Below are positions 32,629 through 58,405 of a stretch of DNA of 64,000 bases, one piece after another. The DNA lies in the NCBI RefSeq assembly GCF_900129765.1, contig NZ_FQWU01000002.1, positions 1,364,001-1,428,000 of the forward strand, written 5' to 3'. Positions within the stretch are counted from its first letter, which is position 1, and each line of letters starts with the position of its first letter. The position numbers were made by a program, and so were the translations under genes. The notes under the pieces are model-generated. The model searched no databases, was not told the DNA's origin, and was given only the letters and a program-made list of their open reading frames with translations. This stretch comes from Massilia sp. CF038 (GTDB lineage: Bacteria > Pseudomonadota > Gammaproteobacteria > Burkholderiales > Burkholderiaceae_D).

Positions 32629-34425
32629 CTACAGCCTATCGAGCTGCGGCGGCAAATCGCGCAGCATGGCCGCACGGGCGCGCGCGCCGCCCATCGCATC
32701 GGCCTGCTTTGCATCAAGCACGAGTCGTGCAAACACCACCGTGCGGCGGCCTTTTTTTGCCCACCCTACATACCAACCATACTGGCGCGTAGCGTCGTCG
32801 CCGCCGTCTGGCAGCAGCGCCGACGCCGTGCCCGTCTTGCCCACAACGTGCCAGCCATTGCCCAGGGTTTGCTGCGGCAAGATGCGTTCGGTCTTGGCGT
32901 ACGCCTGTGGGGACAGCGGCAGTTCGCGGTTCGCTACCTTGCGCAGAAAGTTCACTTGCTCGCTTGGCGAGATGCGCAAACTCGAGCTGACCCACGATTG
33001 CACGAGGCCGTTGTCCTTGCCCGGGTCGCCGCCCAGGTCCTGATTGCCGTAACTGAAGCCTTGCACATAGTCCTGGAAACGCTTGGCGCCCAGACGGGTC
33101 GTGATCTGCTGGGCGTACCAGAGCACCGAGTTCTGCAACCAGGTGCTGGGATCGGTATCGGCTTGCCACGACGGTATATAAGCGGGGTAGCCGGTCTTGA
33201 ACGGCAGCATCGGAGCGTGCTCGTCTTGCAGAATGCCACTATCAAAGCCCATCAGCGCCACTGGAATGTTGAACGTTGACGCTGGCGTGACCTGCTCGTC
33301 GCAGTGGCCGTCGCGCACCAACTGCGCGCCACTGGCGGCATCGACCAGCAAGGTACAGCTGAATGCCGCCTGCGCGACAGACGGATCGCTGCGCCAGGCC
33401 AGCGCAGGCTGGAAAGCCAGGCTGGCACCAAACAGGCTTGCCAGCGCGGCGATTGAAAAAATGCGCGCCGCGTCCGCACCGCGGCTACGCCCGTTGGAGG
33501 GCTCGCGGATCAGCGCGATGCGCGCAGCCAGGGTGCCGGCGCAAACGGCGCCAAATGCCAACGCCGTCTGGCGCGCATCCCGCTGCAGACGCAGTTGGGC
33601 CACCAAAGCTGCGGCATAGGCTTTGCGCTGCGCAGGTGCGCGCGAACGAAGCACATCCCGGTCGCACCCAAGTTCCTGCGCCCAGGACAGGCGGTTGCGC
33701 AGCATGCGCATGAACGGATTGAACCAGAGCAGCGATTGCAGCGCGATACCCACGCTCATCCAATGCAGGTCGCGACGGCGCCAGTGCATCAGTTCGTGCT
33801 CGATGATCAGTTGTTGTTGCTTGGCGTCGAAGCCGCGCAGATGGCGCGGCAGCAGCAAGCGCGGGTTCAGCAGGCCGAACAGCATGGGCGAAATCGGCGC
33901 GTCCACTTCGATGATGCTTGGCAGCGAAGTCGGCGCGGTCTCGGTGCCTGGCTGGGCCGGAAGTCGGACGCCGCTTGCGGCCAGGTGATCAAGCAGGCGA
34001 CGCGCGTACAGTAAGCGGAGCACGGTGTAGCCCAGGCCAAGCAGGTAGACCAGCAGCCACACTTGCGCGGCACGCGTCAGCCAGATCGCGGGGCGCAGCG
34101 CATCGCCAGTGGCAGCGCTCGGCCTGCCAGGGCCCGGCAGCGCGCTGCCGCCATCCGTCGCTGTGGCATGGCTGAGCGCAACTTCCGGCAGGTCAATGGG
34201 AGGGACCAGGCGCAAGTGTTCGCTATGCGGCAGTAAAACGACCAGAAACGCCGCCATCACCGTAACCTGGCCCAGCAGCCAGGTGGAGCGGCGAAGCGCC
34301 ACGCCCGGCAAGCGGCCAAACATCGCAGTGACGCCCCACGCGCCCATGCCGACGGCCACACAAGCCGCGCTGGCGAGCAAGAACCGCAACGGCAACTGGT
34401 CCAGCAGTGCAGACAATCCTGTCAT
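32629..34425 (-). CDS. blaR1: BlaR1-type sensor: M56 metalloprotease + OXA-like sensor domain
   Basis: 598 residues. N-terminal membrane helices, an M56 zinc protease loop with IIEHELMHWRRRDLHW and QELGCDRDVL, another helix near residue 330, then an extracellular penicillin-binding domain like class D beta-lactamases. In BlaR1 the sensor Ser is acylated by beta-lactam and the protease destroys BlaI. Here the sensor motif is ASTFNIP: Ser383 is kept but the Lys that is carboxylated in class D enzymes is Asn386 (AAC). The YGN and KTGT motifs are present. The sensor domain is close to the class D half of the divergent beta-lactamase. It overlaps blaI by 4 bp. Confidence 0.88.
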   Translation of the reverse strand: MTGLSALLDQLPLRFLLASAACVAVGMGAWGVTAMFGRLPGVALRRSTWLLGQVTVMAAFLVVLLPHSEHLRLVPPIDLPEVALSHATATDGGSALPGPGRPSAATGDALRPAIWLTRAAQVWLLVYLLGLGYTVLRLLYARRLLDHLAASGVRLPAQPGTETAPTSLPSIIEVDAPISPMLFGLLNPRLLLPRHLRGFDAKQQQLIIEHELMHWRRRDLHWMSVGIALQSLLWFNPFMRMLRNRLSWAQELGCDRDVLRSRAPAQRKAYAAALVAQLRLQRDARQTALAFGAVCAGTLAARIALIREPSNGRSRGADAARIFSIAALASLFGASLAFQPALAWRSDPSVAQAAFSCTLLVDAASGAQLVRDGHCDEQVTPASTFNIPVALMGFDSGILQDEHAPMLPFKTGYPAYIPSWQADTDPSTWLQNSVLWYAQQITTRLGAKRFQDYVQGFSYGNQDLGGDPGKDNGLVQSWVSSSLRISPSEQVNFLRKVANRELPLSPQAYAKTERILPQQTLGNGWHVVGKTGTASALLPDGGDDATRQYGWYVGWAKKGRRTVVFARLVLDAKQADAMGGARARAAMLRDLPPQLDRL

Positions 34426-34922: not shown

Positions 34923-36767
34923 ATGACATTCCGCATGACTGCCATGGCCGTTGTGGGCGCCGTGGCTGCGCTGGTAGCGGCGCCTGCCCTGCACGCAGCC
35001 GAAATCTGTACGGCAATTGCCGACGCTGCCACTGGCAAGGTATTGATGCAGCGCGGCGACTGCCAGCGCCAGGTCACACCCGCGTCCACATTCAAGATCC
35101 CCTTGAGCCTGATGGGGTATGACGCAGGCTTTCTGAAAGACACGCAAACGCCCGAGCTGCCTTTTCGCCAGGGTTACGTCGACTGGCGCCCCAGCTGGCG
35201 CAGCGCAACCGCGCCAGCCAAGTGGATGAGCGAGTCGGTGGTCTGGTATTCGCAGCAAATCACGCAGTCACTGGGTAAAAAGCGGTTTGCCGAGTACACC
35301 ACCCGCTTCAACTATGGCAATGCCGACGTGTCGGGCGATGCCGGGCACGAGGGCTTGACTGCCGCCTGGCTGGAGTCCTCGCTGCGCATTTCTCCGCTCG
35401 AGCAACTGTCTTTCCTGGGCAAGGTGGTGAACCGCCAGCTGGGGGTGAGCGAGCACGCCTACGCGATGACGGCGCAGCTGACGCAATGGGGCCAGTCGCC
35501 GGACGGCTGGCGCATCCATGGCAAGACTGGCAGTGGTGACGGTTACGGCTGGTATGTCGGCTGGGCGTCGAAGGGTGCGCGCGCTTATGTTTTTGCGCGC
35601 CTGATTCAAAAAGATAAATCGGACGCTGCCGACGTACCGGGCGGCATGCTGGCGCGAGACAGCTTGATGGAAGAGTTTCCGGCTTTGGTCAACGGCATCG
35701 CGGTGGATCAGACCATGCGTCCACTCATGCAAGAGAACGACATTCCCGGCATGGCGGTGGCAGTCAGTGTGAACGGCAAGCACTACTTCTATCACTACGG
35801 GGTGGCGTCAAAGGAGACGGGGCAGCCGGTGACCAACGCAACCCTGTTCGAAATCGGCTCGCTCAGCAAAACCTTCACAGCCACGCTGGCCACCTATGCC
35901 CAAGCGCAAGGCAAGCTGGCCATGACAGATGCGGTCAGCCAGCACGTGCCGCAACTGCGTGGCAGCAACTTTGACCACATCCAGCTGCTGCATTTGGGCA
36001 CGCATACGGTGGGCGATTTCCCGATGCAGGTGCCGCTGGACATCAAGACCTACGATCAACTGATGGATTACTACAAGCGTTGGCAGCCTGGCCATGGCGC
36101 TGGCACGCATCGCACGTATTCCAACCTTGGCATCGGCCTGCTTTCCATTGCCACGGCCCACAGTCTGGGCATGCCGTATGTGGACGCGGTCGAGCAGACG
36201 CTGCTGCCCGCACTGGGCCTCAAGCACACCTGGATCAAGGTGCCCGCAGACGAGATGGCACAGTACGCGCAGGGGTATAATAGCAAAGGCGCACCGGTGC
36301 GCGTGAACCCGGGCGTGCTTGCCGATGAAGCCTATGGCGTCAAAAGCACAGCAGCGGACCTGATCCACTTTTTGGATGCGAACATGGGCTTGATCACGCT
36401 CGATGCCAACCTGGCGCGCGCCATTCGCGATACCCACGCGGGCTATTTCAAGGCTGGGCCGATGACGCAAGATCTGGTGTGGGAACAATATCCCTCCCAG
36501 GCGGCACTGGAACAACTGCTCGTTAGCACATCGGAAAAGATGACGCGTGAATCGAACCCGGTCAGCACGATCGCCCCACCCCTGCCACCGCAAGCGCACG
36601 CCTGGCTGCACAAAACAGGTTCTACAGGCGGCTTCAGCGCCTACGCCCTGTTCAATCCTGCGCGCAAGGTCGGCATCGTCATTCTGGCAAACCGCGTCCT
36701 TCCGGGCGACCAGCGGGTGCGTGCGGCGTATGGGCTGCTCAATCAGCTGGGACCGGACGCACCATAG
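34923..36767 (+). CDS. Bifunctional class D + class C fusion beta-lactamase
   Basis: 614 residues, signal peptide ending LHAA. Residues ~25-260 are a class D domain with Ser55 and Lys58 in ASTFKIP, the YGN motif (RFNYGNAD) and GKTGSGDGYGW. Residues ~262-614 are a class C domain with Ser313 and Lys316 in GSLSKTF, the YSN motif (RTYSNLGIG) and HKTGSTGGF. All catalytic residues of both halves are present, so both may be active in the periplasm. A natural enzyme of this plan, LRA-13, was described from Alaskan soil metagenomic DNA. Control by the divergent blaI-blaR1 pair is supported by two palindromes in the promoter. Confidence 0.93.
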   Translation: MTFRMTAMAVVGAVAALVAAPALHAAEICTAIADAATGKVLMQRGDCQRQVTPASTFKIPLSLMGYDAGFLKDTQTPELPFRQGYVDWRPSWRSATAPAKWMSESVVWYSQQITQSLGKKRFAEYTTRFNYGNADVSGDAGHEGLTAAWLESSLRISPLEQLSFLGKVVNRQLGVSEHAYAMTAQLTQWGQSPDGWRIHGKTGSGDGYGWYVGWASKGARAYVFARLIQKDKSDAADVPGGMLARDSLMEEFPALVNGIAVDQTMRPLMQENDIPGMAVAVSVNGKHYFYHYGVASKETGQPVTNATLFEIGSLSKTFTATLATYAQAQGKLAMTDAVSQHVPQLRGSNFDHIQLLHLGTHTVGDFPMQVPLDIKTYDQLMDYYKRWQPGHGAGTHRTYSNLGIGLLSIATAHSLGMPYVDAVEQTLLPALGLKHTWIKVPADEMAQYAQGYNSKGAPVRVNPGVLADEAYGVKSTAADLIHFLDANMGLITLDANLARAIRDTHAGYFKAGPMTQDLVWEQYPSQAALEQLLVSTSEKMTRESNPVSTIAPPLPPQAHAWLHKTGSTGGFSAYALFNPARKVGIVILANRVLPGDQRVRAAYGLLNQLGPDAP

Positions 36768-40536: not shown

Positions 40537-41439
40537 ATGAATATCAACAGCATCACCTTGCTGAAATACCCGCGCACTGCGCACTTGGCCGGTTCACGCC
40601 TGCAACTTAACGATAGCGCTACGGATCAGATTGCGCTGTCCTCGCTGGCTGGCCGCTACGTTGTCATCGAAGAAAAACTCGATGGCGCCAATACCGGCAT
40701 CTCGTTTTCCGATGCTGCCGAAGTGATGCTGCAATCGCGCGGCCATTACCTGGCTGGCGGTGGCAGCGAGCGCCAGTTCAACCTGCTCAAACCATGGGCT
40801 CGCGCCCACGAAGCGTGGCTGCTGGAACGTCTGGACGATCGATTTGTCATGTATGGCGAATGGACGTACGCCAAGCACTCGGTTTTTTACGACAATTTGC
40901 CGCATTTTTTTCATGAGTTCGACATATTTGATCGGCAGACCAGGCAGTTTCTGTCGACCAAGCGGCGCCATACTTTGCTTGCAGAGGGGCCGGTGCTATC
41001 GGTCCCGGTTCTTTACGCCGGATTGATGCCGACCAATCCCAAGCATTTATGGAAATTGGTTTATCGCTCCTTGGCAAAAACGCGCGACTGGAAAGCAGCA
41101 TTCGAAGCAGCCGTCAGGCGCGAGGGCCAGCCTCTTGATCTGAGCTGGAGGCAGACCGACAAGTCTGACCGGTCGGAGGGCCTGTACCTGAAGGTGGAAG
41201 ACGACGAGCAAGTACTGGCGCGTTACAAGTTGGTGCGATCGGATTTTACGCAGACGATTCTCGATTCTGGTTCGCACCATGCGCGCCGGCCCGTGCTGCC
41301 AAACGCGCTGGCCGCGGGCGTGGATCTGTATACGCCGCAGCTGCTGGTGAACTGGGACTGCCTGGGGCTCAAGACTTTGCACACGGTCGATGAACTTGCG
41401 GCAGCCTCGTCTGCATGGTTCGACGCCGAGCGCATGTGA
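40537..41439 (+). CDS. ATP-dependent RNA ligase
   Basis: 300 residues, nucleotidyltransferase superfamily. Motif I is EEKLDGANTGISF with the adenylated Lys47; motif III-like segment is RFVMYGEWTYAKHSV; motif IV is EGLYLKVED; motif V is LARYKLVRSDF. The C-terminal extension is specific to this ligase group. Its neighbour encodes an HD-Pnk end-healing enzyme, which makes ends that this ligase can join, so the pair is an RNA repair module. DNA substrates cannot be excluded. Confidence 0.85.
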   Translation: MNINSITLLKYPRTAHLAGSRLQLNDSATDQIALSSLAGRYVVIEEKLDGANTGISFSDAAEVMLQSRGHYLAGGGSERQFNLLKPWARAHEAWLLERLDDRFVMYGEWTYAKHSVFYDNLPHFFHEFDIFDRQTRQFLSTKRRHTLLAEGPVLSVPVLYAGLMPTNPKHLWKLVYRSLAKTRDWKAAFEAAVRREGQPLDLSWRQTDKSDRSEGLYLKVEDDEQVLARYKLVRSDFTQTILDSGSHHARRPVLPNALAAGVDLYTPQLLVNWDCLGLKTLHTVDELAAASSAWFDAERM

Positions 41440-41502
41440 TTGCTGTCGCGCCCCGCATGCGCGCAGCAGCGACAAAAATAAGATGAAGAAATGGAGTAAT
41501 GT

Positions 41503-42639
41503 ATGGACTGGAAAACAATTGAAGGCCTGGTACCGGGCCCGGGACAAGCGCCCGATTTCGCCGCATGCCTGCAAGCCTTTCCGCAGCTTGAACTGGCCAA
41601 AACCACACCCCAGTCGCCGCTCTACCACGGAGAAGGCGACGTGTGGACCCACACGATGATGGTTGTAAATGCGCTGCTGGCCATGCCCGACTATCAGGGC
41701 GCGCCCAGGTGCGAGCAGGTCACGGTCTTTCTGGCTGCACTGTTGCATGACATTTCGAAATGCAGCACGACTGTGATCGACCCGGTCACCGGGGCGATCG
41801 GTCAGCCGGGGCACTCCAAAAAAGGCGCCATCGATGCGCGTATCGCGCTCTGGGATGCGGCGGCACCGTTTGCGGTGCGCGAGGAAATCTGCAGGCTGAT
41901 CGCTGTGCACCAGAAGCCATTTTACGTCATGGCCGATGCGCGGCGCGCTGTCACACCTGAATACGCGGTACGGGAATTGTCGTGGCAAGTCAGCATTCCC
42001 TTGCTTGCGATGCTGGCCGAAGCGGACATGCGTGGCCGCATCTGCGCAGACCAGGCAAAGGTCCTCGACAATATCGAATTGTTCCGGGAAATGGCGCGTG
42101 ACGAAGGCTGCTACGGGCAACCACGGTCATTTGCCGACGCGCATACACGACTGGCATATTTCCGTGGCGCCGACGTGCATCCCGACTACGCCCTGTTCCA
42201 GGAGCCGGGTTCAAAGGTGGTGGTCATGTGCGGTCTGCCGGCATCTGGAAAAAATACCTGGGTGTCCGAACATCACGCAGACCTGCCAGTGATCTCCTTC
42301 GATGACGCACGTGACGAACTGGGACTCAAGCACGGAAAAAATGAGGGCCTGGTGGCGCACCGGGCCACGGACAAGGCCAAAGCGCTGCTGCGGGCAAAAG
42401 CGCCCTTTGTGTGGAACGCCACCCATTTGAGTCAGCAGATGCGGGACAAAACGCTCGACCTCCTTTTCGCCTATCACGCAGAGGTTGAACTGGTGTATCT
42501 GGAGCGTTCCAGGTCAGAGCTGTTGCGCCGCAATACCCGGCGCGATACCTCGCTGTCGAACAAAGCGTTGCAGGCCATGCTGTTCAAGTGGGAGTTGCCA
42601 CTGCCGGCGGAAGCGCACCGGGTGACCTACGCTTTGTGA
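41503..42639 (+). CDS. HD-Pnk: HD phosphoesterase + polynucleotide 5'-kinase
   Basis: 378 residues. The N-terminal HD domain has His at WTHTMMVV and His82-Asp83 in LLHDISK. The C-terminal kinase domain has the P-loop GLPASGKNTW (~244-253), VISFDDARDELG and a lid with RRNTRR. This matches Runella slithyformis HD-Pnk, where the HD part removes 2',3'-phosphates and the kinase phosphorylates 5'-OH ends. The Asn after the P-loop Lys replaces the usual Ser/Thr; relatives have Asp there. It follows the RNA ligase by 63 bp in the same direction. The two act together on broken RNA (probably tRNA). Confidence 0.88.
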   Translation: MDWKTIEGLVPGPGQAPDFAACLQAFPQLELAKTTPQSPLYHGEGDVWTHTMMVVNALLAMPDYQGAPRCEQVTVFLAALLHDISKCSTTVIDPVTGAIGQPGHSKKGAIDARIALWDAAAPFAVREEICRLIAVHQKPFYVMADARRAVTPEYAVRELSWQVSIPLLAMLAEADMRGRICADQAKVLDNIELFREMARDEGCYGQPRSFADAHTRLAYFRGADVHPDYALFQEPGSKVVVMCGLPASGKNTWVSEHHADLPVISFDDARDELGLKHGKNEGLVAHRATDKAKALLRAKAPFVWNATHLSQQMRDKTLDLLFAYHAEVELVYLERSRSELLRRNTRRDTSLSNKALQAMLFKWELPLPAEAHRVTYAL

Positions 42640-42816
42640 AAATTCTCGCGGAAGATTGCCCATTTTCAATGCAACGCCCGCGAGACCGGAATTTTTGTCC
42701 GTCAGGCTGGCTGAGATATAATCCCGGATACTTGTTTCTCAGAAATAAGGCATAAGCCCAATGCCGGCGGCTGCCCTGCGCTACCGGCCTCCGATTCGAC
42801 CCTGACTCCCTGCAAC

Positions 42817-43569
42817 ATGACGCGAGTCCTTCCGCCTACTCATTTCCACAGTTCCCTCCTTCTCCGTTGCCTTGCCGAAATCGACCTTCTGGAAAGCAGA
42901 GAGCTCGCTGGCGATTTCGCGGAGCAGCTGGGACAGTGGATGCACTTTACCGACGCGATCGCCTTGTCCTCCGTGCTGGACAGTGGCGTGGCGAAGATCG
43001 CGCCACAGAATCCGGCGCAGCGCGCCGCAGCCGCTGCGCTTCACGCAACGGAATTCGAGCGCATTCAGGCATTCATGCTGAGCTCAATTAAAAAGAGCTG
43101 CGCCGCGAAAGGTGGCTCGCATATCAAGCTGCCTCTGCCGCTTGATGCCGAGGTGTCGTATTTGCCATACAAGCAGTTTTATGAAGCACACCAGCGCGAC
43201 ATGGAGCTCAGCGTCGAGCCCCTGCGCGTGAACCTGCGCGCGGCACTGGCCAAAGCTTCGCCCGAGCTCCGAAAGCTGGCCGAGCTCGACGTTGTGATGG
43301 GAAAAATCCTGCGCGAGCGCGAAAGCCGGCTCTTAAGCAGGGTACCGGTGCTGCTGAAAAAACGCTTCGACGCCCTCTACGCCGCGCATTTGGAACAACT
43401 GACCGCGCAAGGCCAGGACGACAACCCAGCTGCCTGGATGCAAGCCGGAGGCTGGCTGGCGCGCTTCTGCCAGAGCCTGCAAACACTGCTGCTGGCCGAA
43501 GCCGATCTGCGTCTGCAGCCAAGCGCCGGACTCCTTGAAGCACTTAAACAACAAGAACACGATGCGTAA
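42817..43569 (+). CDS. DUF3348 family protein, first gene of the DUF802 operon
   Basis: 250 residues, mostly helical and cytosolic, opening LPPTHFHSSLLLRCLAEIDL. It contains FAEQLGQWMHFTDAIALSSV and YKQFYEAHQRDMELSVEPLR, the pattern of DUF3348 proteins from Burkholderiales. These genes sit next to DUF802, OmpA-like and DUF2894 genes, as here. The last 8 bp overlap the start of the DUF802 gene, so the proteins are made together. No enzymatic motif; it may be a cytosolic partner of the membrane complex. Confidence 0.85.
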   Translation: MTRVLPPTHFHSSLLLRCLAEIDLLESRELAGDFAEQLGQWMHFTDAIALSSVLDSGVAKIAPQNPAQRAAAAALHATEFERIQAFMLSSIKKSCAAKGGSHIKLPLPLDAEVSYLPYKQFYEAHQRDMELSVEPLRVNLRAALAKASPELRKLAELDVVMGKILRERESRLLSRVPVLLKKRFDALYAAHLEQLTAQGQDDNPAAWMQAGGWLARFCQSLQTLLLAEADLRLQPSAGLLEALKQQEHDA

Positions 43570-46093
43570 ATATTTCTTCCCCCTCGCCTTCCTCACAGGC
43601 GCCATCGCCGTCATCTGGGTCGGCTTCGGCTTTATCGATTCGAGCCCGCTGGCCATGGCGATGACGGCACTGATCTTCGCCGTCTATCTTGCAGGTGCAA
43701 GCGAGCTGCACCGCTTCCGCCAGGCCACCGCCACCCTGACGAGCGCACTCAAAGCCATTGCAACAGACGCGCCCGACCTGAACCAGTTCCTTTCCGGTCT
43801 GGCCGGCTCGCTGCAGCATCCCGTGCGCCTGCGCATCGAAGGCACACGGTCAGCCCTGCCTGGCCCATCTATGACGCCCTACCTGGTCGGCTTGCTGGTC
43901 ATGCTGGGGATGCTTGGCACCTTCCTTGGCATGGTTGTGACGCTCAAGGGCGCCGTCTTCACGCTGGAAAAAACCGCCGACCTGGCCGCCATGCGCTCGG
44001 CGCTGGCCGTGCCGGTGAAGGGCCTGGGTCTGGCATTCGGCACCTCGGTCGCCGGTGTGGCGGCGTCTGCCGTGCTGGGCCTGATGTCGGCGCTGTGCCG
44101 TCACGAACGGATGCTGGCTGGTCAGCTCCTCGACAGCAAGGCTGCCACCGTCCTGAGCGGGTTCTCGCATGCGCGCCAGCAAGAGCAGACGTTCCGGGCC
44201 TTGCAGTCGCAGTCCGAGGCGCTGCCCCAGGTGGTCGACAAACTGCAGGCGATGATGCTGCAAATTGAGGCAATGAACGACCGCCTGAACCAGAGCCTGC
44301 TCACCAATCAAGAACAGTTCCACAACAACGCCACCGCGACATACACGGAACTGGCGCGCTCAGTTGACAAATCGTTGCGCGAGAGCCTGACCAATAGTGC
44401 GCAGACCGCCGGTGAAGGCATCCGGCCGATATTCGAAGCAGCAATGCAAGGCATCGCGCAGGAAGCCAGGGCCATGCACGAGCGTACGGCCGGCACAGTG
44501 CAGCAACAACTCGACGGCCTGGCCGCGCGCTTTGGCGTGGCAACGGAGGGCGTCGCCCAAACGTGGAACGCGGCCCTGGAGAACCAGGCACAGACCAATC
44601 GCAGCATGGCCAGCGAGATGGCACGCGCCTTGACCGCCTTCAGCGCCGCGTTCGACACGCGCGCCGGCGCGCTGGTTGCCACAGTCGGCGCTACCTATGC
44701 CAATCTGCAAGCCGGCCAGGCAGCACACGATGCGCAGCGCCAACAGGCCTGGACCCAGTCGCTTGAGGCAATGGCAGCCACGCTGACCAGCGAACTACGG
44801 GACAGTGGCGCCCAGGTGCTTGCACAGCAGCAGGAAATTTGCACTGCCGTCACCCGGGCCGTGCGGGAAGCTGGCGACGTATATGTTGGCTTGCAGACCG
44901 GGCAAGCCGCCCAGGACGCGCAACGGCAGCAGGCCTGGACGCAGTCTCTGGAAGCAATGGCGGCAACGCTCTCGCAAGAATTGCAGGAAAGTGGCGCGCA
45001 AGTGCTTGCCCAGCAGCGGGAAATCTGTACCGCCGTCACGCATGCCGTGCAGGAGACCGGCCAGGCCTACGCGAACTTGCAGACAGGACAGGCCGCCCAG
45101 GATGCGCAGCGCCTGCAAGCCTGGACCCAGTCCCTGGAAGCAATGGCAGCAACACTCACGCGTGAACTGCAGGAAAGCGGCGCGCAGGTACTGACCCAAC
45201 AGCGCGACGTCTGCGCAGCAGTGACGCACGCCGTCGGTACGCTGGCTGAGCAAGTGCAGGCGGATGCGGGCAAGTCGCTCGCTCAAGCTAGGCACCTGGT
45301 GACCACGGCCGAAGAATTGATGCGTTCGCGCATTGCGGCGGAAGCGCAGTGGCTGGACCAGCACAGCGCGCGCATGAACCAGCTTGCAGGCCTGCTGCAG
45401 ACCGAACTGGGCGCACTGCGCGACCAGGAAGCGGCGCGCGGCGACGCAGCCGTAGCGCACCTGGGTCACTTGCAATCAGTCGTGAGCACCCATTTAACCA
45501 CGCTGGGTACCGCCCTGGAAGAACCGATCTCGCGTTTGATCGAGACTGCCGCCGAAGCACCGCGCGCGGCCGCAGAAGTGATTGGCCAGCTGCGCCAGGA
45601 AATCTCAAACAGCGTGGCACGCGACAACGTTGTGCTGGAAGAACGCAGCCGCATCATGGAAACGCTCAATTCCTTGCTGGGGGTAATCAACCATGCATCG
45701 CACGAACAGCGCGCCGTGATTGATGCGCTGGTCGCTTCCTCGTCCGACAAGCTGGACGCTGCCAGCACCGCGTTCTCTGCCAACGTTGCCGGCGAATCGG
45801 CCAAGCTGGCAGAAATTGCCGCCAATGTCACCACCAGCGCGGTGGACGTGGCCAGCCTGGCCGATGCCTTTGGGGTGGCGGTCCGCGCCTTCAATGAGGC
45901 CAATGAAAAGCTCGCCTCCAACCTGGACCGCATCGAGACCGCACTCGACAAATCCATGTCGCGCAGTGACGGCCAGCTGGCCTACTACGTTGCCCAGGCG
46001 CGCGAGATCATCGACCTTTCCATGAGTTCGCAAAAGGAAATCGTCGACGAACTGCGTCAGTTGCCGGCCATGCTGGCGGTCGAGGGCAAGTGA
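43562..46093 (+). CDS. DUF802 protein: MotA/ZorA-like membrane stator with long coiled-coil tail
   Basis: 843 residues from MRKYFFPLAFLTGAIAVIWV. Helices lie at about 5-23 and 28-46, then 101-124 (TPYLVGLLVMLGMLGTFLGM) and 150-180 (GLGLAFGTSVAGVAASAVLG). The glycine-rich GTFLG helix and the following AFGTSVAG helix are the signature of MotA/TolQ/ExbB/ZorA channel subunits. The remaining ~650 residues are a long helical tail with three 62-residue tandem repeats, longer than in MotA and like ZorA. With the OmpA-like neighbour it should form an ion-driven motor in the inner membrane. Start chosen at the first helix; it overlaps DUF3348 by 8 bp. Confidence 0.8.
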   Translation: MRKYFFPLAFLTGAIAVIWVGFGFIDSSPLAMAMTALIFAVYLAGASELHRFRQATATLTSALKAIATDAPDLNQFLSGLAGSLQHPVRLRIEGTRSALPGPSMTPYLVGLLVMLGMLGTFLGMVVTLKGAVFTLEKTADLAAMRSALAVPVKGLGLAFGTSVAGVAASAVLGLMSALCRHERMLAGQLLDSKAATVLSGFSHARQQEQTFRALQSQSEALPQVVDKLQAMMLQIEAMNDRLNQSLLTNQEQFHNNATATYTELARSVDKSLRESLTNSAQTAGEGIRPIFEAAMQGIAQEARAMHERTAGTVQQQLDGLAARFGVATEGVAQTWNAALENQAQTNRSMASEMARALTAFSAAFDTRAGALVATVGATYANLQAGQAAHDAQRQQAWTQSLEAMAATLTSELRDSGAQVLAQQQEICTAVTRAVREAGDVYVGLQTGQAAQDAQRQQAWTQSLEAMAATLSQELQESGAQVLAQQREICTAVTHAVQETGQAYANLQTGQAAQDAQRLQAWTQSLEAMAATLTRELQESGAQVLTQQRDVCAAVTHAVGTLAEQVQADAGKSLAQARHLVTTAEELMRSRIAAEAQWLDQHSARMNQLAGLLQTELGALRDQEAARGDAAVAHLGHLQSVVSTHLTTLGTALEEPISRLIETAAEAPRAAAEVIGQLRQEISNSVARDNVVLEERSRIMETLNSLLGVINHASHEQRAVIDALVASSSDKLDAASTAFSANVAGESAKLAEIAANVTTSAVDVASLADAFGVAVRAFNEANEKLASNLDRIETALDKSMSRSDGQLAYYVAQAREIIDLSMSSQKEIVDELRQLPAMLAVEGK
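44687..45244 (+). repeat. Three tandem 186-bp repeats within the DUF802 gene
   Basis: Units start at 44687, 44873 and 45059. Each encodes 62 residues with a shared core: QAWTQSLEAMAATL, then ELQESGAQVLAQQREIC and AVTHAV. The nucleotide copies are closely alike, so the expansion is recent or maintained by recombination. The repeats lie in the coiled-coil tail, and their number could set its length. Confidence 0.9.
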
Positions 46094-46728
46094 TGGAAGA
46101 AATGGACGCATCGGAACACAGCGCACCAACCTGGGCCGTGTTTGGCGACCTGATGTCCGGTCTGCTGGGCGCCTTTGTCCTGCTGCTGGTGGCGGTAGTG
46201 GGTGTGCAAATGGAATTGACCTCCAGCCTGCAGGAAGAAGTGAAGAAGCGTCAAGCCGAGGAGCAACGCCGCCTGACGCTGGAAAAAGCCCTGGCAGTAC
46301 CGCTGGCAAGCGGCCGTATTACGCTCAACAATGGCCGCATCGGCATTAGTGGACAAGTCTTGTTTGCGCAAAATTCGGACAAGTTGCAACCGGACGGACG
46401 CCAGTTGCTGAGCAGCCTGGTGCTGCCCTTGCAGGCTTACCTGTCAGCGCGCGATGAAATGCTGATGGTCAGCGGCTTTACCGATGACAAGGCGATCCGC
46501 AACGGTCCGTTTGCCGACAACTGGGAACTGTCGGCGCAACGCGCCTTGACGGTGACGCGCACGCTGGTCGAGCAAGGCATGCCATCGTCCATGGTGTTTG
46601 CTGCGGCATTCGGCGCCGAGCAGCCAGTCAAGCCGAATACCGACGACGCTTCGCGCGCCCTGAACCGGCGCGTGGAAATGGCGCCCGTGCCCAAGTCGGC
46701 GCCAGCCAAAATGCGACCCAATGAGTGA
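46093..46728 (+). CDS. OmpA-family protein, MotB/ZorB-like stator subunit
   Basis: 211 residues. A single N-terminal helix with an acidic residue at its start (TWAVFGDLMSGLLGAFVLLL, Asp19) matches the proton-carrying helix of MotB/ZorB/ExbD proteins. A short coiled coil follows, then an OmpA/MotB peptidoglycan-binding domain (VLFAQNSDKLQPDG; VSGFTDDKAIR; ALNRRVEM). It overlaps the DUF802 stop by one base (TGATG). The pair has the plan of a peptidoglycan-anchored rotary motor. Confidence 0.88.
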   Translation: MEEMDASEHSAPTWAVFGDLMSGLLGAFVLLLVAVVGVQMELTSSLQEEVKKRQAEEQRRLTLEKALAVPLASGRITLNNGRIGISGQVLFAQNSDKLQPDGRQLLSSLVLPLQAYLSARDEMLMVSGFTDDKAIRNGPFADNWELSAQRALTVTRTLVEQGMPSSMVFAAAFGAEQPVKPNTDDASRALNRRVEMAPVPKSAPAKMRPNE

Positions 46729-47473
46729 CGGCGCGACAATCAATGCAGTTGCGCTGCTGGCACGCCTGAAGGATGCGGACAGCGAACGCTTTGATACTGC
46801 CGGCTGGCACTACATCGACAGCTTGGCCCGGCGTGCGGCCGCGCATGAAGGAAGCGTGCGACGCTTGCTTGACGCAAAACTTGAGGTCGCAGTGACAGCA
46901 TTTGCCGCGCGTTTCGATCAGGCACGAAGTAATGCGGCAGACGTGTTGGAACGTGCCTGCAAGGCGCATCCGCACGCGGCCGCCGAACTGCAAACCCTGT
47001 ATGCGTGCAGCGACTTCAAGGGCTTGCGGCGCCTGCGCGCCACGCTGGACGCACGCCTGCACTGTGCGGCCCTGGATGCGCTGGTGGCGCAACTTGAACC
47101 TGCCCTGGCCCAAGCACCCCAACATTCGCCCGCGCAAGGTGTTGCATCGCCGCCGACCGGGCCTGCCGCCCCCGCCCTGGAATTGAAGACGATTCGTGAA
47201 TCGCGCGACACCTGGGCCCGCTTAAGCGTCGACAAACAGCTGGCGTTGGCCATGAAACAGGCGCCGCAAAATGCCGGGCCGATCAATTCGCACATGCTGG
47301 TACTGCGCTCGCTGGCGAAAATGCAGGCCATGTCGCCCGACTACTTGAACCGCATGGTTTCTTACGTTGATACGCTGCTGTGCCTGGATCCGGGTGAAGT
47401 GCTTGTCCCTGCCAAGAAGAAAAAGCCCGCCGCCGCAAAATCGGGCAAACCGACAAAGGCAATGAGAAAGTAA
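46721..47473 (+). CDS. DUF2894 family protein, last gene of the DUF802 operon
   Basis: 250 residues, soluble and helical. It contains WHYIDSLARRAAAHEGSVRR and a later segment with IRESRDTWARLSVDKQLALA and INSHMLVLRSLAKMQAMSPD, as in DUF2894 proteins. A Pro/Ala hinge lies in the middle, and the C-terminus is a Lys-rich tail (KKKKPAAAKSG) that could bind nucleic acid or membrane. It overlaps the OmpA-like gene by 8 bp. Function unknown. Confidence 0.83.
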   Translation: MSDGATINAVALLARLKDADSERFDTAGWHYIDSLARRAAAHEGSVRRLLDAKLEVAVTAFAARFDQARSNAADVLERACKAHPHAAAELQTLYACSDFKGLRRLRATLDARLHCAALDALVAQLEPALAQAPQHSPAQGVASPPTGPAAPALELKTIRESRDTWARLSVDKQLALAMKQAPQNAGPINSHMLVLRSLAKMQAMSPDYLNRMVSYVDTLLCLDPGEVLVPAKKKKPAAAKSGKPTKAMRK

Positions 47474-54154: not shown

Positions 54155-54682
54155 ATGACACGAGTGAGATTAATTGTGTTCGACCTGGATGAGACCTTGG
54201 TGCACGCGACCGAGGTCCCATTGGCTTACCCGCATGCGTTTCAAGTCGGCCCATATTTTGTCTACGTAAGACCGTTTGCGCACGAACTGATCACATTCAG
54301 TTCGTCGCACTTCGATGTCGCGGTCTGGTCTTCCTCGAGCGAAGCCTATGTGAAGGCCGTCACCGCAGAGCTGTTTGGCACGACTTTTCCCGTCACATTT
54401 TCGTGGGCCGTGTCGAAGTGCGTGCAGAAGGTCGATGCAAAAAGTAACGGCTACGTTTACATCAAGGATCTGCGCAAGGTGTTGAAGCATGGGTATGCGG
54501 CAGACGAAATCATCATGATCGACGACAGTCCCGAAAAATTGCAGAGGCAACCTGCGCGCCATCTTTGCCTGCCAGCCTTCACGGGTGATCCTGCAGACGC
54601 GGAACTTCCTCGCGTTATTGACCGCATCAAGATGATGGCTTCGTTGGAAACACAGTTCCGCTCCAGTCAGACCTCCCCTTGA
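54155..54682 (+). CDS. FCP1/NIF-type HAD phosphatase
   Basis: 175 residues. DxDxT catalytic motif in IVFDLDETLVHA, followed by VRPFAHELI, FDVAVWSSSS and IIMIDDSPEKL, the NIF/FCP1 pattern better known from eukaryotic RNA polymerase II phosphatases. Bacterial members exist but targets are unknown. No signal peptide. It stands alone, with no clear partner. Confidence 0.82.
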   Translation: MTRVRLIVFDLDETLVHATEVPLAYPHAFQVGPYFVYVRPFAHELITFSSSHFDVAVWSSSSEAYVKAVTAELFGTTFPVTFSWAVSKCVQKVDAKSNGYVYIKDLRKVLKHGYAADEIIMIDDSPEKLQRQPARHLCLPAFTGDPADAELPRVIDRIKMMASLETQFRSSQTSP

Positions 54683-57556: not shown

Positions 57557-58405
57557 TCAGGCTTTGCCAGTGCCGAGCGTACGCGCGAACGCGGCAAAAG
57601 TTCCATCGTTCTTCCGATCGAGAACGGCGAAACAAATCCGGGCAAAAGCGCCACGGTAGACAGGGTTGTGGACAAGGCATTTGGCAAACCATCCGGCCAT
57701 CTGGTCCGCGCGATGAGCGAACACCCCACAGCCCCAGGCCCCGAGCACCAGCGTGCTGTGGCCGCGATGCAGCGCAAGCGCCAGCAGCATCTCGATTCGA
57801 CGCTGCATCACAAATTCAACTTCGTCGAGGCGCTCGGGTTCATTACGAACCAGCGCACCCCGATTTACAGCGGGCGCCGAGATAAATGACGCCGCTAGTG
57901 GCTGATCGAGGAACGCATACGTATCGTCGCGAAACACAGGCACCGATGGGGAGTAAATCATGTCATCCAGGTACATGCTTGTGTGCAGATTGCGATTCGC
58001 TTCGTAGAGTTCCATCTTTTGTACGATACAAGCATACAAACCCGATGATTTTGCCAGGTTTTCTTCCTGTGCCTCGGAGCCGCCCAGGAAGCCTCCACCT
58101 GGATTTTTGGCAGAGGCAAAGTTCAGACACAGGATGTCGTCGTGCCCTTCCCTTGCAAGACGGCTGATCGCCGCCAGGCTCGATTCGTTGGATACCTCAA
58201 TATCCGTTGCATGGTGTTGTCCGACCATGGTCGCACTACGCAACACATCGAGTTGTGCTCCGGTGTAGTGGACGGTGCCGTCCTTCGCAAGCGCAAGCGC
58301 TCGCGCGATGCTGACCGTGTCACCCCTGCGGTTGACGTAGCTGCCAGCGGCCAATATATCCAGCGTCTCTTGCGCAATTTTTGCGCGGCTTTCCCGGTTT
58401 ATCAT
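57557..58405 (-). CDS. Bacterial PARG-type macrodomain protein (TIGR02452 family)
   Basis: 282 residues. The poly(ADP-ribose) glycohydrolase signature is intact: NFASAKNPGGGFLGGSEAQE with the catalytic GGG-x(n)-QEE ending in Glu-Glu, then LGAWGCGVFAHR and ICFAVLDRK. Bacterial PARGs remove ADP-ribose from proteins or degrade poly(ADP-ribose). No ADP-ribosyltransferase lies beside it in the window. The start follows AAGAAACGGATC. Confidence 0.88.
   Translation of the reverse strand: MINRESRAKIAQETLDILAAGSYVNRRGDTVSIARALALAKDGTVHYTGAQLDVLRSATMVGQHHATDIEVSNESSLAAISRLAREGHDDILCLNFASAKNPGGGFLGGSEAQEENLAKSSGLYACIVQKMELYEANRNLHTSMYLDDMIYSPSVPVFRDDTYAFLDQPLAASFISAPAVNRGALVRNEPERLDEVEFVMQRRIEMLLALALHRGHSTLVLGAWGCGVFAHRADQMAGWFAKCLVHNPVYRGAFARICFAVLDRKNDGTFAAFARTLGTGKA

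What the first reader, a model, noticed from the sequence alone, without database searches (positions are those of the whole stretch)
42817..47473. DUF3348-DUF802-OmpA-DUF2894 operon looks like a ZorAB/MotAB-type ion-driven motor
Seen: four overlapping genes. The DUF802 product has four N-terminal helices with GTFLG and AFGTSVAG signatures of MotA/TolQ/ZorA proteins and a ~650-residue helical tail. Its partner has the acidic first helix (Asp19) and a peptidoglycan-binding domain as in MotB/ZorB. Known: such pairs are rotary motors in motility, TonB/Tol energy transfer and Zorya defence. Inferred: a fifth kind of motor, with two cytosolic partners of unknown role, conserved in Burkholderiales.
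Basis: partly seen in the sequence, partly recalled or inferred. Interest (0 to 1): 0.85.

Follow-up and report, generated by a model that had tools for sequence, protein, structure and literature searches.

The report
Zorya type III anti-phage motor operon
These four genes encode a known bacterial anti-virus machine, Zorya type III, built on the same ion-driven motor plan as the flagellar stator; a less expected detail is that its long rod changes length between species mostly in whole turns of the helix.

Summary
In detail: four overlapping genes at 42817-47473 encode DUF3348, a MotA-like protein with a ~650-residue helical tail, a MotB-like OmpA protein with Asp19, and DUF2894. 'A fifth kind of motor' fails: all four match PADLOC type III Zorya models (E 6e-266 to 2.5e-57), and Zorya III was published in 2021 with phage protection shown in E. 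coli. Gene order holds wherever the contig has room. Asp19 is present in 26 of 26 and 80 of 80 aligned sequences that cover it; the sets overlap. DUF3348 is near-core in one genus (51 of 60); in the window's genus (6 of 17) no two loci share flanks (0 of 15 pairs). Not found in print by my searches: type III ZorA tails vary widely in length (60 distinct, 397-1058 residues between anchors), mostly in steps keeping alpha-helical phase (period 3.65; 0 of 5000 random sets as strong; 52 of 58 independent length differences within a quarter turn). The tip is as conserved as the core. The window's copy has two extra 62-residue modules, 17.0 turns each. How the two partner proteins act is open.

The parts
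42817..43569 (+). DUF3348 component (PADLOC-DB label ZorG3; called ZorF in the text of the 2021 paper); all-helical in the AlphaFold2 model
43562..46093 (+). ZorA type III: membrane motor core (residues about 1-190), tail shaft, conserved tail tip; overlaps the previous gene by 8 bases
44519..44677 (+). Pfam DUF802 stretch (ZorA residues 320-372), part of the tail shaft, not the motor domain
44732..45204 (+). tandem array of a 186-base (62-residue) tail module, 2.5 copies by TRF; three close relatives carry one copy
45761..46090 (+). ZorA tail tip (last 110 residues), about as conserved as the motor core; likely docking site (inferred)
46093..46728 (+). ZorB type III: one N-terminal membrane helix with Asp19 and a C-terminal OmpA/MotB peptidoglycan-binding domain
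46721..47473 (+). DUF2894 component (PADLOC-DB label ZorF3; called ZorG in the 2021 paper): helical N-terminal domain, NAGP-containing C-terminal part, basic end
42695..42722 (+). sigma-70-like promoter match (10 of 12) upstream of the first gene; a consensus match only

Best explanation
The locus is a complete Zorya type III anti-phage operon (ZorG-ZorA-ZorB-ZorF in PADLOC-DB labels). Five ZorA and two ZorB subunits most likely form an inner-membrane, ion-driven rotary motor; ion flow past ZorB Asp19 and the ZorA Thr/Ser ring turns or twists it, and ZorB anchors it to peptidoglycan (reported for types I and II; inferred here from conserved residues). The five ZorA C-termini form a long cytoplasmic coiled-coil rod ending in a conserved tip. 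When a phage attacks, the motor is triggered (trigger inferred) and the signal travels down the rod to the tip, which recruits or activates the two all-helical partners; these stop the phage by an unknown chemistry, since no nuclease domain is recognisable in the operon. Shown here: gene content, order, key residues, tip conservation, helical-phase constraint on tail length. Inferred: stoichiometry, triggering, tip as docking site, partner function.
For: PADLOC-DB type III models hit by all four proteins: ZorG3 1.3e-65, ZorA3 6e-266, ZorB3 4.8e-107, ZorF3 2.5e-57; the best type I and II hits are far weaker (9e-8 and 5e-6 for ZorA, 1e-20 and 2e-7 for ZorB). Zorya III defined by this gene set (6,401 loci) and a Stenotrophomonas nitritireducens system protected E. 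coli (passages read). Core homologous to solved type I ZorA 8vvn. Asp19 invariant where covered. Same four genes in the same order: in 80 named loci ZorB and ZorF in 80, ZorA in 78, ZorG in 72; all 8 loci without ZorG start at a contig edge. Tail tip 66% mean pairwise identity against 67% for the core and 47% for the first 100 shaft residues, 60 of 165 sequences sampled. Tail-length changes mostly keep helical phase. Published type I/II work shows that the ZorA tail, the ZorB Asp and peptidoglycan binding matter for defence (passages).
Against: No activity of this copy was or could be tested. In some groups the distribution is not typical of a mobile defence gene: 51 of 60 genomes of one genus, one copy each apart from one split hit; fixed location in Variovorax (10 of 10 pairs) and Limnohabitans (28 of 28 pairs; both sides shared in 21). 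No convincing second defence gene among 15 neighbouring window proteins scanned against PADLOC; the weak hits fall in the histidine-kinase and response-regulator proteins. No nuclease or other effector domain in ZorF or ZorG, unlike types I and II.
Confidence: 0.93

Rival explanations
1. A housekeeping ion-driven motor of Burkholderiales (envelope maintenance or division) whose phage protection in E. coli is a by-product.
For: Near-core presence of DUF3348 in some genera: 51 of 60, 5 of 5; fixed location in Variovorax and Limnohabitans; no match in 50,697 phage records; plasmid matches in 27 records, the 20 listed being 366 kb to 3.2 Mb.
Against: Patchy elsewhere: 6 of 17 in the window's genus, 35 of 76, 25 of 399 in the order sample, two of which showed no ZorA, ZorB or ZorF within the 20 kb fetched; no shared flanks in any of 15 pairs in the window's genus. 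A 2026 paper already shows type III Zorya in R. solanacearum as a highly conserved defence system, so core status does not exclude defence (passages). Direct phage protection published.
Confidence: 0.08
2. A flagellar or TolQR/ExbBD-type stator, not Zorya.
For: OmpA-like domain matches MotB/PomB structures; weak Pfam MotB_plug match (E 0.2).
Against: No MotA/ExbB Pfam domain at E up to 1 and no ExbD/TolR domain; the MotB-type NCBIfam models among the 25 of 42 shown are far below their cut-offs; no flagellar or Tol genes among the neighbours scanned; type III Zorya models fit decisively.
Confidence: 0.01
3. A new, fifth kind of motor of unknown role.
For: No published structure or mechanism of type III was found in the library searched; ZorF and ZorG have no confident structural relative.
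Against: ZorA and ZorB are homologous to type I Zorya proteins and the gene set is the published definition of Zorya III.
Confidence: 0.02

Closest known systems
Zorya type III (Payne et al. 2021, PMC8565338; passages seen)
   Same: Same four components; all PADLOC type III models hit
   Different: This ZorA has three copies of a 62-residue tail module where three genus relatives have one; the 2021 text calls DUF3348 ZorF and DUF2894 ZorG, PADLOC-DB labels them the other way round
Zorya types I and II (ZorABCD, ZorABE)
   Same: ZorA/ZorB motor core, long ZorA tail, ZorB Asp and peptidoglycan-binding domain
   Different: No ZorC/ZorD or ZorE among the proteins scanned; two all-helical DUF proteins instead. 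The 2025 paper (PMC11890865, passages) says component size is well conserved within a family, whereas type III ZorA here ran from 558 to 1193 aa among 99 sequences kept at 550 aa or more
Flagellar stator MotAB/PomAB
   Same: Motor plan, Asp in the B-subunit helix, OmpA-like domain
   Different: ZorA carries a ~650-residue tail; no flagellar gene among the neighbours scanned
SMC coiled-coil arms (PMC5344682; passages seen)
   Same: Natural coiled-coil lengths restricted to periodic values; force transmission proposed
   Different: SMC shows a ~91-100-residue super-helical period plus a minor 3.5; type III ZorA shows 3.65 only, no long period above chance

Membership tests
Zorya type III | ZorA-type protein with MotA/ExbB-like core and long helical C-terminal tail | tested here: met
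   PDLC00647 E 6e-266; core aligns to type I ZorA 8vvn
Zorya type III | ZorB with membrane Asp and OmpA-like peptidoglycan-binding domain | tested here: met
   PDLC00651 E 4.8e-107; Asp19 in 26 of 26 and in the 80 of 81 that have a residue there
Zorya type III | DUF3348 and DUF2894 genes flanking zorAB | tested here: met
   order conserved
Zorya type III | 5:2 ZorA:ZorB assembly | not testable with these tools
   no complex prediction available; 5:2 is reported for types I and II
Zorya type III | protection against phage | not testable with these tools
   published for another strain's system; this copy untested
Zorya type I or II | ZorC and ZorD, or ZorE, beside zorAB | tested here: not met
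   none among 15 neighbouring proteins scanned against PADLOC nor the four operon proteins; smaller neighbouring ORFs were not scanned
Flagellar MotAB stator | MotB family model over its curated cut-off | tested here: not met
   best MotB and MotD models 87.6 and 82.0 bits against cut-offs of 259 and 283; the only NCBIfam model over its cut-off among the 25 shown is NF006547, 'hypothetical protein' (346 against 194)
TolQR / ExbBD | ExbB/TolQ and ExbD/TolR domains | tested here: not met
   no such Pfam hit at E up to 1

The most novel reading that the evidence does not exclude
Type III ZorA tails are free in length but largely locked in helical phase. They behave as a continuous, register-preserving drive shaft (a coiled coil of period about 3.65, so right-handed or nearly straight) that carries torsion or rotation from the membrane motor to a strictly conserved tip where ZorF and ZorG dock; reach does not matter, continuous register does. 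If so, Zorya III is a torque-transmission device rather than a ruler, and tail mutants that shift phase by 1-2 residues should fail while changes of whole turns should work. The modest alternative, not excluded, is that any long coiled coil must keep register simply to fold.
Probability: 0.35. Interest if true: 0.6.

Novelty: already known. Interest (0 to 1): 0.36.

Why it matters
It settles that the operon is a described anti-phage system rather than a new motor. The added result, tail-length evolution mostly in whole helical turns with a conserved tip, gives a direct, cheap test of how Zorya motors pass a signal from membrane to cytoplasm, and makes type III (many natural tail lengths) a good system for that test. 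It also shows that Pfam 'DUF802' is here a piece of the ZorA tail shaft, not a name for the motor domain.

Tried and rejected
Fifth motor kind: rejected. A fifth operon component: 59 flanking ORF families occur in at least 6 of 126 loci; the call lists the 25 commonest (the top one in 26 loci) and prints 12 representatives, which I read by eye without a family scan. They look like common families or belong to groups of loci sharing one chromosomal site, so no candidate, but 34 families were not looked at. Structural relatives of ZorG and ZorF: Foldseek found nothing at E up to 0.001. The second look gave best Z 8.2 (ZorG, MxB stalk, rmsd 5.4, 161 aligned) and 10.1 (ZorF N-terminal part, Borrelia BB0323, rmsd 6.2, 133 aligned); both lie under the level the tool calls informative for helical bundles, so no claim is made. 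Profile search against PDB sequences: none for ZorG, best E 0.01 for ZorF to PscE over 51 residues, not believed. Tail tip against PDB: best E 0.13, nothing. ZorA alone against PDB: no match; only the profile reached 8vvn. ZorF basic tail as DNA binder: last 30 residues have median net charge +4 (78 of 104 at +3 or more), ZorG -2 (1 of 98), but ZorB's periplasmic end is also basic (+3, 59 of 105), so it is weak evidence. Modulo-7/11/18 counts on alignment gaps were set aside because the aligner itself could favour in-phase gaps; anchor-to-anchor lengths replaced them. First anchor patterns were too strict (103 of 187 loci, period 3.645); the relaxed ones gave 171 of 187, the 16 lost being contig ends, broken or masked copies or unmatched motifs. 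An earlier version on 110 tails (105 anchored, 45 lengths) gave 3.65. Results against the phase rule: 10 of 60 lengths lie more than a quarter turn from the common phase, and 6 of 58 independent differences (1, 118, 148, 261, 261, 345) do not fit. A long super-helical period: none above chance. Carriage by viruses: a scan with the single ZorB sequence, which reaches close relatives only, found none in viral contigs; ZorG none in phage records.

Full report
What is there. The four ORFs exist as described at 42817-47473 on the + strand, each overlapping the next by 1-8 bases. Pfam names them DUF3348, DUF802, OmpA and DUF2894. DUF802 is only 53 residues (ZorA residues 320-372) in the tail, so the name says nothing about the motor core. 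A sigma-70-like promoter match lies about 100 bases upstream (a consensus match only).

What it is. PADLOC-DB gives decisive type III Zorya hits for all four proteins (ZorG3 1.3e-65, ZorA3 6e-266, ZorB3 4.8e-107, ZorF3 2.5e-57). Payne et al. 2021 (PMC8565338, passages) defined Zorya III by this gene set in 6,401 loci and showed that one from Stenotrophomonas nitritireducens reduces phage plating on E. coli. In that text DUF3348 is ZorF and DUF2894 ZorG; PADLOC-DB labels are reversed, and I use PADLOC-DB labels. The 2025 structural paper on types I and II (PMC11890865, passages) reports 5:2 ZorA:ZorB complexes, a bundled ZorA tail, and that the tail, the ZorB Asp and peptidoglycan binding matter for defence. 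[quoted passage not shown] So the motor interpretation is right and the 'fifth kind' claim is wrong.

Key residues. ZorA's core profile matches solved type I ZorA 8vvn (E 2.3e-6), with GTF aligned to GTF and GTS to LTS. T120 and S162 are invariant in 37 sequences and T161 nearly so. Because the type I structure was reported with Na+ bound at conserved Ser/Thr residues, type III may also use Na+; this is inference. ZorB Asp19 is present in 26 of 26 sequences and in all 80 that have a residue there, of 81. The two sets overlap in part.

Operon stability and distribution. In all 8 loci without ZorG the first operon gene found lies within 145 bases of a contig edge. Some of these copies are incomplete (for example L071, masked inside ZorA, and L096, short ZorB). 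In 28 loci from the genus and order samples, 26 carry the operon. Two weak DUF3348 hits (L060, L061) do not; one locus is cut by a contig end (L044), one gave no ZorF by BLASTP (L056), and one (L038, from a genome 48% complete) is broken. DUF3348 prevalence: 6 of 17 in the window's genus; 25 of 399 in the order sample, 23 after removing L060 and L061; 51 of 60 in a genus that contains Cupriavidus metallidurans CH34 by matching contig length and coordinates; 5 of 5; 35 of 76. These tallies count DUF3348, not the whole operon. Flank sharing (a homologous ORF of at least 100 codons within 7 kb, both strands, a generous test): 0 of 15 pairs in the window's genus, 10 of 10 in Variovorax, 28 of 28 in Limnohabitans (21 on both sides), 90 of 231 in the Cupriavidus-containing genus, 3 of 15 in an Azoarcus/Aromatoleum set, 109 of 1540 among 56 named loci over 15 kb. 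So it seems to move in some lineages and to be settled in others. A 2026 paper (PMC13064858, passages) already shows type III Zorya in R. solanacearum as a highly conserved defence system, and a 2025 paper lists it in a Variovorax (PMC11953036, one passage). ZorG has no match in phage records and ZorB no close relative in viral contigs; ZorG matches 27 plasmid records, the 20 listed being 366 kb to 3.2 Mb.

The tail. The window's ZorA is 843 aa against 719 in three genus relatives. The difference of 124 equals two extra copies of a 62-residue module, seen as a 186-base tandem array of 2.5 copies. Another relative (759 aa) has a 40-residue insertion elsewhere that looks like a duplication by eye. 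Among 99 ZorA sequences of at least 550 aa the range is 558-1193; among 104 ZorB of at least 200 aa it is 208-233; some genomes are in both of the pooled sets. I measured the distance between a core motif and a tip motif in 171 of 187 loci (165 distinct sequences, 60 distinct lengths, 397-1058). These lengths cluster in phase at period 3.65: mean vector 0.549, against a null mean of 0.251 and maximum of 0.424, 0 of 5000 random sets as high; 50 of 60 lie within a quarter turn of the common phase. On 58 phylogenetically independent pairs from a tree of the core, the length differences give mean cosine 0.673 at 3.645, 0 of 10,000 jittered sets as high; 52 of 58 lie within a quarter turn of a whole number of turns and 44 within 0.15 turn, while 1, 118, 148, 261 (twice) and 345 do not fit. 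The recurrent differences 40, 51, 62, 73, 80, 87, 95, 124 and 146 are 10.97, 13.99, 17.01, 20.03, 21.95, 23.87, 26.06, 34.02 and 40.05 turns. The tail's own hydrophobic periodicity peaks at 3.64 in 60-residue windows and 3.67 in 200-residue windows. The same test on ZorG and ZorF lengths shows nothing; dropping 12 of 60 lengths at random, 500 times, leaves the vector at 0.450 or more. No longer period exceeds chance. A 104-residue tip segment has 66% mean pairwise identity, the core 67%, the first 100 shaft residues 47% (60 of 165 sequences sampled). The simplest reading is that the tail is a continuous coiled coil in which mostly register-preserving length changes survive. The bolder reading is that it is a torsion-transmitting shaft with a docking tip. 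SMC arms are a published precedent for periodic coiled-coil length limits and proposed force transmission (PMC5344682, passages). My searches listed no description of this for Zorya, but subscription papers, including the Nature paper on Zorya (not held), were not searched, and I did not open most of the 10 papers listed.

The partners. AlphaFold2 models are all-helical: ZorG mean pLDDT 88.5, pTM 0.84; ZorF mean pLDDT 80.7, pTM 0.54, with a confident N-terminal helical domain, a second, less confident helical part around the NAGP motif and a low-confidence basic end. No confident structural or sequence relative was found and no nuclease domain. Their role as sensors, adaptors or effectors is open; Payne et al. 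proposed that they regulate ZorAB.

Neighbourhood. Beside the operon lie an RNA ligase and an HD-AAA_33 protein upstream, and an ECF sigma factor, a PAS-GGDEF-EAL protein and a two-component system downstream. None of the 15 neighbours scanned against PADLOC gave a convincing defence hit. Operon GC is 0.625 against 0.600 for the window, within the spread of equal-sized windows (0.549-0.640), so composition gives no sign of recent arrival.

Noticed in passing
window 40537-42639: RNA ligase (PF09414) followed by an HD + AAA_33 (kinase-like) protein, same strand, just upstream of the operon: looks like an RNA end-repair pair. No homologue in the 7-kb flanks of the other type III loci compared.
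   Followed up: partly
window 34923-36767: One protein with an N-terminal penicillin-binding-transpeptidase domain (29-234) fused to a C-terminal beta-lactamase domain (261-603), divergent from a BlaR1-like M56 peptidase + transpeptidase protein at 32629-34425. Resembles known class D/class C fusion beta-lactamases (recalled).
   Followed up: no
window 57557-58405 and 54155-54682: Microbial-type PARG catalytic domain, and an NLI-interacting-factor-like phosphatase.
   Followed up: no
L038 (G014): Type III operon with split ZorG, truncated ZorA and shortened ZorB frames in a genome 48% complete; decay or sequencing errors cannot be told apart.
   Followed up: no
L060, L061 (G158, G025): Weak DUF3348 matches (E 5e-6, 4e-5) inside open frames of 460 and 453 aa without ZorA, ZorB or ZorF within the 20 kb fetched: possibly an unrelated or fused DUF3348 relative.
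   Followed up: no
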